Shown one piece after another: positions 47,810 to 52,556 of a stretch of 57,190 nucleotides of DNA. A program made the position numbers and the translations under genes. Source of the stretch: Bodo saltans (taxonomy: Eukaryota; Euglenozoa; Kinetoplastea; Eubodonida; Bodonidae); contig CYKH01000275.1 of the NCBI GenBank assembly GCA_001460835.1, positions 1 through 57,190 of the forward strand. The letters are read 5' to 3'. The first letter of the stretch is position 1. Each line of letters begins with the position of its first letter. A model generated the notes under the pieces. The model worked only from the letters and a program-made list of their open reading frames with translations, did not search any database and had not been told where the DNA came from.

Positions 47810-48262
47810 ATGTACTCCAAGAACATTTACGTGAGCGAGAGCTCGATGAACTACTCTGACGCGAACCTTTCTGAGAGCGACGTTGACAGCCCGCTGTACA
47901 ACAACACTCCAATTAAGGGAAGCCGCAACAACTCCATCGACTACTCCAAGTTCAAGACGAAGGTGTGCCGCAACTACATGTTAGGGCTCCGATGCCCATT
48001 TGAGGACCGTTGCGCATTCTCTCACGGACCGATTCCTCGCAGCAACTCCGCCTCTGTTGCTGCCCCGCCACCACCACCATCCTACGCTGACTCTGTCAAT
48101 GAGAGCGCAATTGCTGATGCTGACGCTGATGCTCCACCAACCTACGAGAACTTCCTGACCACCGAGTCACCAGACTGCTCTCAACCCCCGTCCCCACCCC
48201 AGTACCCCTCGAAGTACCGCTACGACCCCTACTCTTGCCAAGGCGTCATCTTCGAGAATTGA
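47810..48262 (+). CDS. Small CCCH zinc-finger RNA-binding protein (ZFP family), copy A
   Basis: The protein has 150 residues. One zinc finger fits exactly C-x8-C-x5-C-x3-H (CRNYMLGLRCPFEDRCAFSH), the RNA-binding type found in trypanosome ZFP1/2/3 developmental regulators. It is preceded by YSKFKTKV. PPxY-type sites occur after it (PPPSY and PPTY), possible ligands for WW domains. It ends KYRYDPYSCQGVIFEN, which includes an R-x-[DEN]-P-Y motif shared with the two following genes. Its neighbour at 49949 is a clear paralogue. Kinetoplastid proteins of this type bind mRNAs and alter their stability. The long 3' region downstream suggests it is itself post-transcriptionally controlled. Confidence 0.9.
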   Translation: MYSKNIYVSESSMNYSDANLSESDVDSPLYNNTPIKGSRNNSIDYSKFKTKVCRNYMLGLRCPFEDRCAFSHGPIPRSNSASVAAPPPPPSYADSVNESAIADADADAPPTYENFLTTESPDCSQPPSPPQYPSKYRYDPYSCQGVIFEN

Positions 48263-49793
48263 TCGGTTTGAACGTGATTATCCCACTTCAACAGCATGGA
48301 CGTGTGCTCGCGCTTGGTGAGGATTTGATACTGTGGCGAGGAAGCAACTGAACGAGACTATGTGCAACGACAGAACTCGGTACTGTTTGCGATCTTGAAA
48401 CTTGAGACGATCCTACACGCGAATCCCCTCAAACCCTTTCTATTTTTACTTTATTTTTCAATTTTCCGTCGTTTAAAGCAGTCTGTGTGAACCTGCAAAA
48501 AAAAAAACAAAAAAAAACATACAACCAAAACAAAACAAAAGCACAGGTCTGGAACTACCTGCGCTCACTGCATGGTGCTTGGGTTCTTTCTTGTGCCTCA
48601 AATAGTGTGACTAAGAGCTCAAGAGAGAGAAGCATGTGTTACTGAGACAGGTGCTCCTTTTTTTTTCTTTTCTCGTATCTTCCCTCCTCGCCCCTCCCTT
48701 TCAGTCCCTCCACCCTCTACAGCTACGCTTTTTACAAAAAAAAATACAATTGCAAGCACCTAGACAAAAAATGTAAGACTAGTGCTCAATTCGCCCTCGC
48801 ATTTTAAAAAAAGAGTGATGCTAGAGAGCTCCTCCGAAACACAGTATTTTAATACGAAGACGATTTGCCGTGTTGCAAGAAAAAGTTTGAAGATCTTGCT
48901 TTTGCAGGTGAGAGAACGTCAATTTCGGAAGCCAGAGTTTTGATACTGAAAAATCGTGCACGATTCCCCGGTTATGTGAAATAAAAACAACAAATCAAGG
49001 AAAAAAAGTGCGAATTACTAGCCGTGCATGTTGCAGTGTTGAGGGGAAGACTAGAACTACGAGCAAACGTAGCGAACGCGTTTCAAACTGGAAGAAAACT
49101 AAAGGAGAGTGTGGTTACGTTACAAACATGTGCTTCTTTCAAGTTTTCAAGCAAAGCCTCTTTTCCTTACCTAGTGGCACACTTAGTGTACAGGCAAAAG
49201 CTCGAAAGAAAGCAGTTTACGCACTCCGCCGACGAACGAGAGCAGAACGAAAGAACATTATTGGTAGCTTCGCAAACAAAAAAAAAGAAGGAGAAAACGT
49301 ATCAACGAGACCCTCGTCTCACAAAAAAAAAATCCTGCGGCAAAAGAGCTATTATGTGTGCTTCGCAAAGCTCAAAAAATATTGAACGGAGACAAAAAAA
49401 ACAAGGATGAAACACAAAGGTGGCTTGAAAAGAAAACGAAGAACGAAAGACATGAAGTGAGTTTGGATTTCAGGAATGCCCTCTGGACACAGTTTCTTTC
49501 TCAGGAAGCAACAGCCTTCTTCCTAGTCCAGACTTTTTGTGGCTCTCGTTCCTCATTTTCACGATTCCTTCTATTGAGCTCATAGTGTTGTTTTTTGGAA
49601 GAAGAAAAAAAAAGAGTTTTGATGGATGCAAGAAACCACGTGGCATTATCCACTTTGTGTGGCAAAGGGATATTTCAGTGGGCGCTTGCAATATCATTAT
49701 TCGCACGTCTCAACTCAAATCAAAAACACCTTGAGAGACTTTCACTCGTCATTGTGTCGCTGAATAATTCATTATCATTCCATGTTTTCTTCA
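48263..49793. other. Long gene-free region (about 1.5 kb), probably 3'UTR and spacer
   Basis: It holds T-rich and A-rich homopolymers (48451-48475, 48497-48540, 48656-48673) and several A-rich tracts to 49410. Two overlapping frames at 49008-49410 reach 128 codons but are Lys-rich, low-complexity and lack conserved content. No RNA gene was recognised. Such a long unit after a regulatory protein gene is consistent with an extended 3'UTR carrying control elements. Confidence 0.65.
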
Positions 49794-49808
49794 TCTTTTT
49801 TTTTGTAG
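49794..49808 (+). promoter_or_regulatory. Candidate trans-splice acceptor for the second CCCH protein
   Basis: A run of T (49797-49804) is followed by AG at 49807-49808. A closer AG (49943-49944) after a T-rich stretch is an alternative; either leaves ATG 49949 as the first in-frame Met. Confidence 0.5.
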
Positions 49809-49948
49809 CCCAGAGAACCATTGTCGCGTAGCAGATCTTTTTTTTCGCTGCCGTGGAAGTTCTAGAACAGTCGGCAAAACAACAAGCAAGAAGAAAAAGT
49901 CAATCCCTTCGCTTACGCGTATTATTATTGTGTTTGATCTGCAGAAAG

Positions 49949-50629
49949 ATGGACCCTTCGATGAACGCTCCACCACCACCACCACCCCCACCACCGTCCT
50001 ATGCATCTGCAACGCACGACATTGATGGTGCATACAGCGGTGGCAATGGCTACGCTCCGCAACAGCAGAGTGGTCCTATTCACAGCCCCACACGCCGTGG
50101 GCCCCCCGTCACAGACGGTGATGGATTTAGTGAGTCAATTGATCCAGCAAAGTACAAAACAAGATTGTGTCAAGCGTACATTATGGGAACTCACTGCACC
50201 TTTGGTGCACGATGTGCATTTGCTCATGGCAACTCTGAACTGCGCCACCACTCTACGTCTTCCCCAACTCCTGCTCAGCTCCCGCCTGCGCCGCAACAAC
50301 AGCAGCAGCAGCAAGCACCGCCTCCCCCACCTCCATCGTACAACGACTTCCACCACCATCACTACAGTGCTGGCCCCTCTTCGCCGCTTCACTCACGCCC
50401 TCAGACGCCAAGAGGTGCTCCAACATTTGGTGGCGGTTCTGCTGATGCACTTCTCTCGCCTACGCGTGGGATCCATCCTCGCAACTCCCTTCCAGGCTCT
50501 CCAGTGACGGCTGGAGATCAGATGGTGTATCCAACTGCTGCCACTCAACGCTTCCGCAACGAGCCCTACTCGCCTTCCGGTTTTGTTTTCCAAGGCAGTA
50601 ACGGTGGCGAAGACGACAAGCAAGAGTAG
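49949..50629 (+). CDS. CCCH zinc-finger RNA-binding protein, copy B, with Pro/Gln-rich regions
   Basis: The protein has 226 residues. It starts with a proline run ending in SY (a PPxY-type site). The finger is CQAYIMGTHCTFGARCAFAH, an exact C-x8-C-x5-C-x3-H with the same flanks (KYKTRL) as copy A. A Gln run (QQQQQQQ), a second PPPSY site and a His run follow. The end contains RNEPYSPSGFVFQG, aligning with copy A's RYDPYSCQGVIFEN. The two genes are tandem paralogues, longer here by insertion of low-complexity sequence. The role is inferred as mRNA binding and control of translation or decay, with PPxY sites available for a WW-containing partner. Confidence 0.9.
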   Translation: MDPSMNAPPPPPPPPPSYASATHDIDGAYSGGNGYAPQQQSGPIHSPTRRGPPVTDGDGFSESIDPAKYKTRLCQAYIMGTHCTFGARCAFAHGNSELRHHSTSSPTPAQLPPAPQQQQQQQAPPPPPPSYNDFHHHHYSAGPSSPLHSRPQTPRGAPTFGGGSADALLSPTRGIHPRNSLPGSPVTAGDQMVYPTAATQRFRNEPYSPSGFVFQGSNGGEDDKQE

Positions 50630-51480
50630 TGTTTATTCAGCGATGGCGAAGCAAGCAAAAAGAAAACGAAGTATCAAAAGCAAAGAACAGATGTGTTCCC
50701 TTTTTTGTTTGATGCTCGATTTCAACCGTTTTTTTGCATATGTGTGTGGGAGTGGTGAAGGCAATTCATCGATCTTTTTGTGTTTGGTGCATCCTCGATT
50801 GGCTGTTTGCAACTTGAGCCAAAGCAACTGATGGCGATGCCCCAAAATTCGAAGAAAAATGCAATTACAGAAATATGGTGAAGTGCGAAATGAGTCTTTC
50901 AGCTCTATCGGTATAGTTAGTTGTTGAACCTCACTTGTTCACATCTTCACATTTATTACTATTGATTGCATGTTTTCTTCGCTTTGGTGATGTCGCGACA
51001 CTCCCTTTTCCTTTCACTCGAGCATCGCGCATCGATGCTTCACCACGTTTTCCACTTTGCCCCCTTCACTTTTCTTTTGATTTACTCTCTCCCCTCTATT
51101 TTCCCTCCTCTCCTGACCTCGTGGTTCTCGTGCGAGCTGTGGTTACGTCTCGAGTTTGAAGAAATGCAGAGAATGTTGTTCTCACAATTTGTGTGCTTAC
51201 ACGTGTGGACCAGTGAATTTCTCAGTTCAACGAACCATGAAACCGAAAAATGCAAAGACAGGATCGCCAAAAACAGAAGCAAACCAAACAGAAAAAAAAA
51301 AACAGAAAAAAAAATGAGGGAAGCGAGGAGCTGAGACAATGATCGGTGGGCCTACATCGTAGAACCAAAAGAATTTGTTGAACTATTGTGCTGCTCATTA
51401 TCTGTGTTTTGTCTAACGCTCACGTATTTTGCTTGTTGCCTTCACACAAACACACGAAATTAAGAATTCAAAGCGTAGAT
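50630..51480. other. Gene-free region, 3'UTR and spacer
   Basis: T-rich with pyrimidine stretches (50940-51120) and an A-rich run at 51280-51315. No coding or RNA gene is recognised. It forms the 3' region of the second CCCH gene and the upstream region of the RRM gene. Confidence 0.6.
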
Positions 51481-51506
51481 CTTACTATAATTGCTGCTCT
51501 CTAAAG
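51481..51506 (+). promoter_or_regulatory. Candidate trans-splice acceptor for the RRM gene
   Basis: A T/C-rich segment (TTGCTGCTCTCT) is followed by AG at 51505-51506. The leader to ATG 51576 is CA-rich and free of upstream ATG codons. Confidence 0.45.
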
Positions 51507-51575
51507 GTGTGATACATCCAGACTTCGACAAACAACACCATTCCCACAACCCTCTCCATCACACACATATCCGCA

Positions 51576-52556
51576 ATGACAAGCCTCCAGAATCTTTTCG
51601 TGACCAAACTTCCGAGGAACATCACTGACATTCACCTGCAGCAAGTGTTCGCCGAGTTCCGTCCTACAAGTGCCAAGGTCATGCTCGACGCCGCCTCTGG
51701 AAAGAGTAAAGGCTTCGGTTTTGTTCTTTTCGACTCCTTAGAGCAGGGTACTAAGGCATTCGACGCCATGAACCACAAGCACGTGAACGTAAATGGCCAC
51801 GGCTTCACGCTCAACATTTTCCCCTCGAAGCACGATGGAAAGACCGCAAGCATGGAATCCAATGCACTCTATATTCGCAACATCCCCACATCCATGTCGA
51901 AGCAAGGTGTCGAGCAGTTCCTCAGTAACTTTGGTACCATGATCTACTGTGCAATGCGAGAGGACCATTACGGAAATCCGGTGTGGGTTGTGTATGTGGA
52001 ATACGACTGTGTCGACTGTGCTAAGACAACTCTCAAGGCCCTCCATGGCAGCACGTCTTACTTCACCAACGCCCCAGCCCCGATCCTTGCCAAGTTCGCA
52101 GATTGCGATGAAGCAAAACGTGAGCGCCGTCGCCGACGCGAAGAAACGCGACAAGTTGCTTCGAAGAGCACCGACAACAAAGATGAGGCTGCCGCAGAAG
52201 AACACCACCACTCTGCCGCGGATGAAACCGTGGCGACAATTGCCGTTGCTGCTGCCCCCGTCGTCCACCATCACCACTCAGCCCCAGCTCCTCCATTACC
52301 TAGTGTCTCGATGTTTACCCCTGCTCCGGTCGTCGACCGCGCTGAAATCATTGCAGGGAAGACCATTCATACCAACCCACTCGGAGCTGCTGATAGCCAC
52401 GATGTATCTTTCCGCTCAGATTCCTACAGCTGGGCCAGCATGAGCAGCATGTACCGACACAACCCCTACGGCGGGACATTCGCCCAAGTCCGTACACCCG
52501 TCGTGGACCGCTCCAACGACAGTGGCAATGCCTCACCAGAAAATCATGCAAACTAA
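51576..52556 (+). CDS. Two-RRM RNA-binding protein with C-terminal HNPY motif
   Basis: The protein has 326 residues. RRM1 runs about 5-85: RNP2 LFVTKL, RNP1 KGFGFVLF. RRM2 runs about 95-175: RNP2 LYIRNI, with RNP1 degenerate (WVVYVEY). An Arg-rich helix (RERRRRREETR), a His- and Pro-rich low-complexity region and a Ser-rich tail follow. Near the end, SMYRHNPYGGTFAQV contains HNPY, the motif known in trypanosome proteins that bind MKT1. That complex with PBP1 stabilises or activates target mRNAs. The gene follows the two CCCH genes in the same orientation, which share a related motif. Function as a post-transcriptional regulator is inferred from domains and context. Confidence 0.9.
   Translation: MTSLQNLFVTKLPRNITDIHLQQVFAEFRPTSAKVMLDAASGKSKGFGFVLFDSLEQGTKAFDAMNHKHVNVNGHGFTLNIFPSKHDGKTASMESNALYIRNIPTSMSKQGVEQFLSNFGTMIYCAMREDHYGNPVWVVYVEYDCVDCAKTTLKALHGSTSYFTNAPAPILAKFADCDEAKRERRRRREETRQVASKSTDNKDEAAAEEHHHSAADETVATIAVAAAPVVHHHHSAPAPPLPSVSMFTPAPVVDRAEIIAGKTIHTNPLGAADSHDVSFRSDSYSWASMSSMYRHNPYGGTFAQVRTPVVDRSNDSGNASPENHAN

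What the first reader, a model, noticed from the sequence alone, without database searches (positions are those of the whole stretch)
47810..52556. Three adjacent RNA-binding proteins share a C-terminal R-x-[DEN]-P-Y motif
The endings are RYDPYSCQGVIF (CCCH A), RNEPYSPSGFVF (CCCH B) and RHNPYGGTF (two RRM). They fit R-x-[DEN]-P-Y-[SG]-(x)-G-x-F. In Trypanosoma brucei an H-[EDNQ]-P-Y motif is known in several proteins that bind the MKT1/PBP1 complex. A linked cluster of unrelated RNA-binding folds with one shared tail looks like a functional module, where each binds its own mRNAs and recruits the same effector. The link to MKT1 is inference, since two copies have Tyr or Asn where His is expected.
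Basis: partly seen in the sequence, partly recalled or inferred. Interest (0 to 1): 0.75.

Follow-up and report, generated by a model that had tools for sequence, protein, structure and literature searches.

The report
Shared MKT1-docking tail in RNA-binding proteins
Three neighbouring RNA-binding protein genes of a trypanosome relative carry the same short tail peptide, which very probably plugs each of them into the MKT1/PBP1 machinery that protects and translates messenger RNAs.

Summary
The motif is real and not chance. The two-RRM protein carries YRHNPY, an exact match to the published trypanosome MKT1-docking motif. The CCCH proteins carry YRYDPY and FRNEPY; they are ZFP1-type paralogues, and the RRM protein is DRBD5-type. 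ZFP1 and DRBD5 are neighbours in T. brucei by gene number. In 49 motif-bearing RRM relatives (of 89 examined) YRHNPY is the only tail stretch with at least 80% identity. All 28 A-type CCCH rows (the window's own included) keep [YF]R[YFH][DEN]PY; five, with Angomonas ZFP1 among them, have the canonical His. All 9 B-type rows keep FRNEPY. Genome-wide the degenerate motif occurs 18 times, against 4 for each of three codon-permuted controls and 5 to 9 for base-reversed ones; 12 of the 18 (9 of 15 outside this cluster) lie in CCCH, RRM or PSP1-type proteins. MKT1, an MKT1-like gene, PBP1 and a WW-CCCH (ZFP2/3-like) gene are present. Best reading: an old linked set of MKT1 clients with a relaxed motif. 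Corrections: the CCCH pair are paralogues, so there is one sharing across folds, and the downstream G-x-F is not shared by the RRM family. MKT1 binding is inferred, not shown.

The parts
47810..48262 (+). CCCH A, 150 aa, ZFP1-type (single C-x8-C-x5-C-x3-H finger)
47951..48031 (+). CCCH finger of A
   Evidence: (E 5.4e-6)
48074..48205 (+). region with three PPxY motifs of A (residues 89-92 PPSY, 109-112 PPTY, 129-132 PPQY), candidate WW ligands
48215..48232 (+). tail motif YRYDPY of A
   Evidence: 28 of 28 A-type rows (own included) have [YF]R[YFH][DEN]PY
49949..50629 (+). CCCH B, 226 aa, paralogue of A with an N-terminal proline run and PPSY
50153..50230 (+). CCCH finger of B
   Evidence: (E 5.1e-5)
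49991..50002 (+). N-terminal PPSY of B
   Evidence: read; the 9 B-type relatives have 2 or 3 PPxY each
50330..50341 (+). second PPSY of B
   Evidence: read; conserved in the 9 B-type relatives
50552..50569 (+). tail motif FRNEPY of B
   Evidence: FRNEPY in 9 of 9 B-type relatives
51576..52556 (+). two-RRM protein, 326 aa, DRBD5-type
51594..52100 (+). RRM1 and RRM2 (limits of RRM2 approximate, from the predicted model)
   Evidence: (2 stretches, E 1.7e-21)
52452..52469 (+). tail motif YRHNPY of the RRM protein, in a tail modelled as disordered

Best explanation
The three genes encode post-transcriptional regulators: a ZFP1 orthologue (CCCH A), a ZFP1-like paralogue (CCCH B) and a DRBD5-type two-RRM protein. 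Each binds its own mRNAs through its finger or RRMs (inferred from the domains). Each then presents the short linear motif [YF]-R-[H/Y/F/N]-[N/D/E]-P-Y, outside its RNA-binding domain, to MKT1 or its paralogue. MKT1 brings PBP1 and poly(A)-binding protein, so that bound mRNAs are stabilised and translated (known in T. brucei, inferred here). The CCCH proteins also carry PPxY motifs that can dock on the WW domain of a ZFP2/3-type protein, so they can bridge a ZFP complex and MKT1 (inferred). Shown here: sequence, conservation, genome-wide enrichment, presence of the partner genes, His in part of the CCCH family. Inferred: the physical interaction and its effect.
For: The RRM tail matches the published motif exactly. 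Twelve T. brucei MKT1 interactors carry H(E/D/N/Q)PY, described as necessary and sufficient (PMC6597758, passages). CFB2's RYRHDPY is required for MKT1 binding and an intact motif is essential for activation (PMC8051951, passages). In 49 motif-bearing RRM relatives the only tail columns with at least 80% identity are YRHNPY, while the modelled tail has pLDDT under 50 at 242-324. CCCH: 37 of 39 profile hits bear [YF]R.[DEN]PY; A-type third residue Y 17, F 6, H 5; B-type N 9 of 9. The 5 His rows need 5 changes on a tree built with the motif masked, that is, they are scattered. Genome-wide 18 forward matches against 4, 4 and 4 for three codon-permuted patterns; 12 of 18 lie in CCCH, RRM or PSP1-type proteins, 7 over a Pfam cut-off and 5 recognised below it, by eye or by paralogy. 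MKT1 (746 aa, MKT1_N and MKT1_C), PBP1 (SM-ATX and LsmAD) and a WW+CCCH protein are present.
Against: No binding was tested. CCCH A and B lack the His of the strict motif; B-type is FRNEPY throughout. Under 1% of ZC3H32 (Asn variant) is with MKT1 in cells. The CCCH searches used queries that contain the tail, and 12 of the 39 profile hits are the window's own protein or seeds of the profile, so 37 of 39 is biased upwards. Well-supported branches alone force only 1 change for the His rows. 40 of 89 RRM relatives lack the motif, among them the listed T. brucei gambiense, T. congolense, T. cruzi and Phytomonas rows, some rows of the 40 being partial, so it is dispensable in some lineages. 3 of the 18 genome matches look like chance and 3 lie in proteins without a known domain; base-reversed controls reach 5 to 9 forward matches. 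LSM12 was not found by its AD domain, but that search rang nowhere, controls included.
Confidence: 0.72

Rival explanations
1. The tail docks on a different partner, for example MKT1L only, PBP1, or another adaptor; the CCCH variants (Y/F/N for His) have diverged to a new partner while the RRM protein binds MKT1.
For: B-type tails are FRNEPYSP in 9 of 9 and A-type tails mostly aromatic, with their own conserved flank. The genome has a second MKT1-type gene (C898).
Against: His recurs in 5 of 28 A-type rows on scattered branches (branch support modest). PSP1-type paralogues on C382 show the same H/Y exchange in one flank (YRHEPYGARVI and FRYEPYGARVI). ZC3H32 NNPY fragments interact with MKT1 in two-hybrid.
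Confidence: 0.15
2. The tails are PY-type nuclear import signals (R-x(2-5)-P-Y), read by transportin, as in many RRM proteins (family knowledge, recalled).
For: R-x2-PY formally fits the core consensus, and the carriers are RNA-binding proteins.
Against: In the RRM tails the two residues between R and PY and the aromatic before R are as conserved as R, P and Y, which a PY-NLS does not need (recalled). No basic patch: 0 of 84 tails counted have 4 or more K/R in the 20 residues upstream. Of 40 motif-lacking RRM relatives only 6 have any looser [RHK]-x(2-5)-PY in the tail. The same kind of peptide has a shown MKT1 role in T. brucei. The hydrophobic PY-NLS subclass was not tested; fixed spacing is no argument here, since the tails were picked by a fixed-spacing pattern.
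Confidence: 0.07
3. The shared tail is only inheritance: A and B are paralogues and the RRM similarity is coincidence, so there is no common effector.
For: A and B are homologous over the finger, PPxY and tail. Only the six-residue core is shared with the RRM protein.
Against: The RRM core is nearly invariant in an otherwise variable tail. A Neobodo CCCH protein, P0158, has YRHNPY, the identical hexamer. Genome-wide matches concentrate in RNA regulators, 18 against 4 for permuted motifs.
Confidence: 0.05

Closest known systems
MKT1-docking regulators of trypanosomes (ZC3H11 HNPY, CFB2 RYRHDPY, ZC3H32 NNPY; ZC3H12 HNPY by prediction)
   Same: Short aromatic-R-H-[ND]-P-Y peptide outside the RNA-binding domain; MKT1 and PBP1 present; the RRM protein matches exactly
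   Different: CCCH A and B carry Tyr and Asn in place of His; binding not shown for any of the three proteins
ZFP1 / ZFP1A / ZFP1B of trypanosomatids
   Same: Small single-CCCH protein with proline-rich regions, linked to DRBD5; Angomonas ZFP1 (P0145) is in the same profile family
   Different: No passage that I saw links ZFP1 to the MKT1 motif; the T. brucei ZFP1 tail was not available to me
DRBD5 (Tb927.6.3480) and its tandem paralogues
   Same: Two RRMs; named trypanosomatid rows are mostly 50-64% identical over the aligned part; neighbour of ZFP1 by gene number
   Different: The listed T. brucei gambiense and T. congolense rows lack the motif; tethered TbDRBD5 suppresses expression (PMC4055773, table passage)

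Membership tests
Proteins with the MKT1-docking motif | H(E/D/N/Q)PY, more fully (Y/W/T)(R/T/Q)H(N/D)PY, in the RRM protein | tested here: met
   YRHNPY; motif text
Proteins with the MKT1-docking motif | The same, in CCCH A and CCCH B | tested here: not met
   YRYDPY and FRNEPY lack His; A-type rows have His in 5 of 28. Filed as works-like, not as strict members
Proteins with the MKT1-docking motif | Motif conserved in orthologues | tested here: met
   37 of 39 CCCH hits, a set biased towards tails; 49 of 89 RRM relatives, 27 of 29 in the clade of the window's closest relatives
Proteins with the MKT1-docking motif | MKT1 and PBP1 encoded by the organism | tested here: met
Proteins with the MKT1-docking motif | Motif necessary and sufficient for MKT1 binding; tethering activates | not testable with these tools
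   needs two-hybrid, pull-down and tethering
ZFP1 family | Single C-x8-C-x5-C-x3-H finger in a small protein | tested here: met
   A and B; sequence
ZFP1 family | Proline-rich regions that bind WW domains of ZFP2/3 | tested here: inconclusive
   PPxY present in all 28 A-type and 9 B-type rows; a WW+CCCH partner gene exists; binding not testable
DRBD5 family | Two RRMs, closest to trypanosomatid DRBD5-type proteins among named relatives | tested here: met
   the identity of the listed proteins with DRBD5 rests on family and gene numbers, not on an accession
DRBD5 family | Gene linked to ZFP1 | tested here: met
PY-NLS | R-x(2-5)-P-Y core | tested here: met
   R-x2-PY in all three
PY-NLS | Basic patch upstream (basic subclass) | tested here: not met
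   0 of 84 tails counted with 4 or more K/R in 20 residues
PY-NLS | Hydrophobic upstream epitope (hydrophobic subclass) | not tested
   -

The most novel reading that the evidence does not exclude
The ZFP1/ZFP1-like/DRBD5 locus is an ancient linked set of RNA regulators that all recruit the MKT1/PBP1 effector. The third motif position is a selector: His tails prefer MKT1, while aromatic and Asn tails prefer the second MKT1-type protein (MKT1L). Relaxing the published motif then enlarges the MKT1/MKT1L client list, for example by PSP1-domain proteins. Lineages that lost the tail, such as T. brucei in DRBD5, changed that protein from activator to repressor.
Probability: 0.12. Interest if true: 0.7.

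Novelty: new member of a known kind. Interest (0 to 1): 0.5.

Why it matters
Kinetoplastids control genes mostly after transcription. ZFP1 and DRBD5 are implicated in life-cycle development (passages), yet the passages I saw do not explain how they act on mRNAs. The tails give both a concrete, quickly testable effector, widen the motif by which MKT1 clients can be recognised, and suggest that the MKT1 code exists outside the trypanosomatids (a Neobodo CCCH protein carries YRHNPY). The lineage-specific loss of the DRBD5 tail is a natural experiment on activator versus repressor behaviour.

Tried and rejected
Considered and rejected. NPxY sorting motif: Tyr follows Pro directly. PPxY/WW docking by the tail core itself: the core is not PPxY; separate PPxY motifs exist. 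PY-NLS: see rivals. The downstream G-x-F consensus: CCCH only. RRM fold for the C459/C197 proteins: the profile comparison aligned only eight columns around YRHNPY with the RRM family, so they are not counted as RNA-binding. MKT1-peptide structure: no convincing PDB relative of this MKT1 by sequence (two hits with E 0.57 and 0.87). LSM12 by its AD domain: inconclusive. The AlphaFold model of CCCH A is poor overall (mean pLDDT 58), though its last 20 residues score highest (72 and 78 per ten) with strands at 136-138 and 146-148; little weight, with 13 sequences. The spacing counter gave a 4:27 / 2:9 split because the expression could start at an upstream Arg; it is not used. The first version of the conservation script failed on a format error and was rerun.

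Rows dropped or not read. Of 229 RRM hits 120 were listed and I used P0001-P0089; by the listing the rest are PABP-like or generic RRM proteins. P0077 (197 aa) was left out of the tree (88 rows). P0157 and P0159 were counted as motif-free CCCH hits and left out of the CCCH tree (37 rows). The A/B sorting of the CCCH hits is mine. In one search the A-type set was 26 of 28 (P0144 and P0158 left out). One search counted 84 tails: 48 of 49 RRM and 36 of 37 CCCH. Of the permuted controls, the 4 matches were read in context (none in a recognisable RNA-binding protein, by eye); those were not. In the wider scan (23 matches) I read 19 in context; C459:15637, C460:792, C661 and C765 were not read. Of 16 CCCH places, one search scanned 15; one (C43, first) gave no ORF row, and C138 B was not in that list.

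Change of odds after checking: the PY-NLS rival went from 0.06 to 0.07, because the fixed-spacing argument against it was circular.
Full report
OBSERVATION. The window is a whole contig (C138, 57190 bases) of an unnamed 29.3-Mb genome. The ORFs that I took as its main genes all run on the + strand. At 47810-48262, 49949-50629 and 51576-52556 lie a 150-aa CCCH protein (A), a 226-aa CCCH protein (B) and a 326-aa two-RRM protein. Their tails read KYRYDPYSCQGVIFEN, RFRNEPYSPSGFVFQG and MYRHNPYGGTFAQVR. The block common to all three is [YF]-R-x-[DEN]-P-Y. In 24 ORFs taken as main genes, PY occurs 16 times and is preceded by D, E or N only in these three.

CONSERVATION, RRM PROTEIN. A protein search gave 229 hits, 120 of them listed, of which I examined the first 89. 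49 of 89 carry [YFW][RST]H[ND]PY. In an alignment of these 49, identity to the reference averages 0.66 over the first 195 residues and 0.25 over the tail; the only tail columns with at least 0.8 are Y, R, H, N, P, Y. The modelled tail has pLDDT under 50 from 242 to 324. This is what a short linear motif looks like. On a tree of 88 members, 27 of 29 rows of the clade that holds the window's closest relatives bear the motif (support 94/87). In several Leishmania and Leptomonas species and Porcisia, and in T. theileri, T. melophagium and T. grayi, one of two listed copies bears it. The listed T. brucei gambiense, T. congolense, T. cruzi and Phytomonas rows lack it; some motif-free rows are partial proteins. 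The label needs 6 changes against 29.1 in shuffles, to which near-copies contribute.

CONSERVATION, CCCH PROTEINS. A profile search with A, B and relatives gave 39 hits; 37 carry [YF]R.[DEN]PY. The query contained the tail, and 12 of the 39 are the window's own protein or seeds, so the share is biased upwards. 28 rows are A-type, with third residue Y in 17, F in 6, H in 5. The His cases include Angomonas deanei ZFP1 (FRHDPY), and P0158, whose label carries the taxid of Neobodo designis, has YRHNPY, identical to the RRM hexamer. 9 rows are B-type, all FRNEPY. On a tree built with the hexamer masked, the B-type rows form one group (100/100), and the 5 His rows need 5 changes, that is, they are scattered; well-supported branches alone force only 1. 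Every A- and B-type row also has at least one PPxY.

WHAT THE GENES ARE. ZFP1s of trypanosomatids have one CCCH domain and two proline-rich regions; WW domains of ZFP2 and ZFP3 interact with ZFP1; T. cruzi has an extra ZFP1B (PMC3070815, passages). A and B fit this. The genome encodes a 144-aa protein with a WW domain, RGG repeats and a CCCH finger, like ZFP3 (C188). In T. brucei, DRBD5 is Tb927.6.3480 and ZFP1 is Tb927.6.3490 (PMC5746284 and PMC5176191, passages), neighbours by number. In the protein database the RRM P0010, A-type P0128 and B-type P0149 all report a 12049-base contig, and the Angomonas RRM proteins and ZFP1 a 774942-base one. I take equal lengths as the same contig, which is an inference.

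LINK TO MKT1. Published text gives the MKT1 motif as (Y/W/T)(R/T/Q)H(N/D)PY (PMC5435347, passages). [quoted passage not shown] CFB2's RYRHDPY is required for MKT1 binding, and an intact motif for activation (PMC8051951, passages). ZC3H32 has NNPY: all interacting two-hybrid fragments contain it, but under 1% of the protein is pulled down with MKT1 in cells. The RRM tail fits exactly. The CCCH tails fit except for the His (and B has F and E where the longer form lists Y/W/T and N/D). The genome encodes a 746-aa MKT1 (MKT1_N and MKT1_C), a second MKT1-type gene split over two ORFs, and PBP1 (SM-ATX and LsmAD).

GENOME-WIDE TEST. The degenerate DNA pattern (read as [YF][RS][HYFNIL][DENK]PY) matches 18 times forward and 0 reverse; its base-reversed control 5 and 6. 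Three codon permutations of the same motif match 4, 4 and 4 times forward and 0, 2 and 3 reverse, with base-reversed controls of 6/2, 9/5 and 7/3. Of the 18: seven lie in proteins over a Pfam cut-off (A, B, the RRM protein, CCCH C156, PSP1 C382, PSP1 C675, RRM C692). Five are CCCH- or PSP1-like below the cut-off, by eye or by paralogy (C156 second, C216 two, C789, C382 second, the last cut by the contig end). Three have no known domain (C197, C459, C588). Three look like chance (C370 and C512 in short open frames, C396 in a DNA polymerase domain). Leaving out the window's three, 9 of 15 remain. That PSP1-domain proteins belong to RNA regulation is recalled (Crithidia cycling-sequence-binding proteins). 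A second, His-only pattern gave 21 forward and 2 reverse against 7 and 3. 19 of the 23 were read. They include a Pumilio protein with RYTHNPY and two more CCCH proteins (C591, C790), but also a membrane-like protein (C244), three without an RNA domain (C197 second, C490, C663) and one out of frame with its CCCH ORF (C43). Among 14 CCCH loci with an ORF row, 12 have no [DENQ]PY, so the motif is not a general property of CCCH proteins. The two PSP1-type paralogues on C382 read YRHEPYGARVI and FRYEPYGARVI, a second case of His/Tyr exchange in one context.

MECHANISM. Most likely each protein selects mRNAs through its finger or RRMs and hands them to MKT1-PBP1 through the tail, raising stability and translation. 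The CCCH proteins can also join a WW-type ZFP partner. Shown: domains, tails, conservation, enrichment, presence of partner genes. Inferred: binding, RNA targets, outcome. T. brucei DRBD5 suppresses expression when tethered (PMC4055773, table passage), and the T. b. gambiense family member P0075 lacks the motif. This fits the model but could have other causes, and I equate P0075 with DRBD5 by family only.

NOVELTY. The motif and its effector are known, as are ZFP1 and DRBD5. I found no passage linking ZFP1 or DRBD5 to the MKT1 motif in what I opened from searches (25 of 40 papers listed; 10; 4; 13 of 14 listed). The main source papers (Singh 2014; Melo do Nascimento 2020) are not held, and I did not open PMC11405848 and PMC3820711, so a table entry may exist. 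I therefore call it new members of a known kind with a relaxed motif.

Noticed in passing
whole genome G000 (C138 is the window): All 48 Pfam-family matches in four searches (16 CCCH, 2 MKT1, 1 LsmAD, 29 WW) are given on the + strand of their contigs, so the contigs seem to be oriented along the coding strand.
   Followed up: no
L051:1059-2717 and L051:2788-3429 (C898): A second MKT1-type gene (MKT1_N in one ORF, MKT1_C in the next) appears split over two ORFs; described only, not joined.
   Followed up: no
L061:3206-4096 (C382), L042, L066:1482-2483 (C675): PSP1-type proteins carry the same hexamer in the N-terminal part, with Y, H and N in the third position: candidate new MKT1 clients.
   Followed up: partly
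L067 (C459:10500-15000): Neighbouring ORFs that begin M[YF][RC]HNPY, no Pfam domain in the two scanned; C459:15637 and C460:792 match the wider pattern too but were not read.
   Followed up: partly
L073:798 (C397): A Pumilio-repeat protein carries RYTHNPY in its N-terminal part.
   Followed up: no
P0023, P0045, P0044, P0051 (trypanosomatid DRBD5-type copies without the motif): These tails end in another similar-looking peptide around VP[FY] (for example PMVFVPYNAS), perhaps an alternative docking motif of the second copy.
   Followed up: no
L007:1369-1929 and L007:1878 (C43): A CCCH ORF overlaps, in another frame, a stretch reading FQHNPY; chance or a sequence error, left as found.
   Followed up: no
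window 48263-49948 and 50630-51575: Long spacers (about 1.7 and 0.9 kb) separate the three genes; they may hold regulatory UTRs.
   Followed up: no
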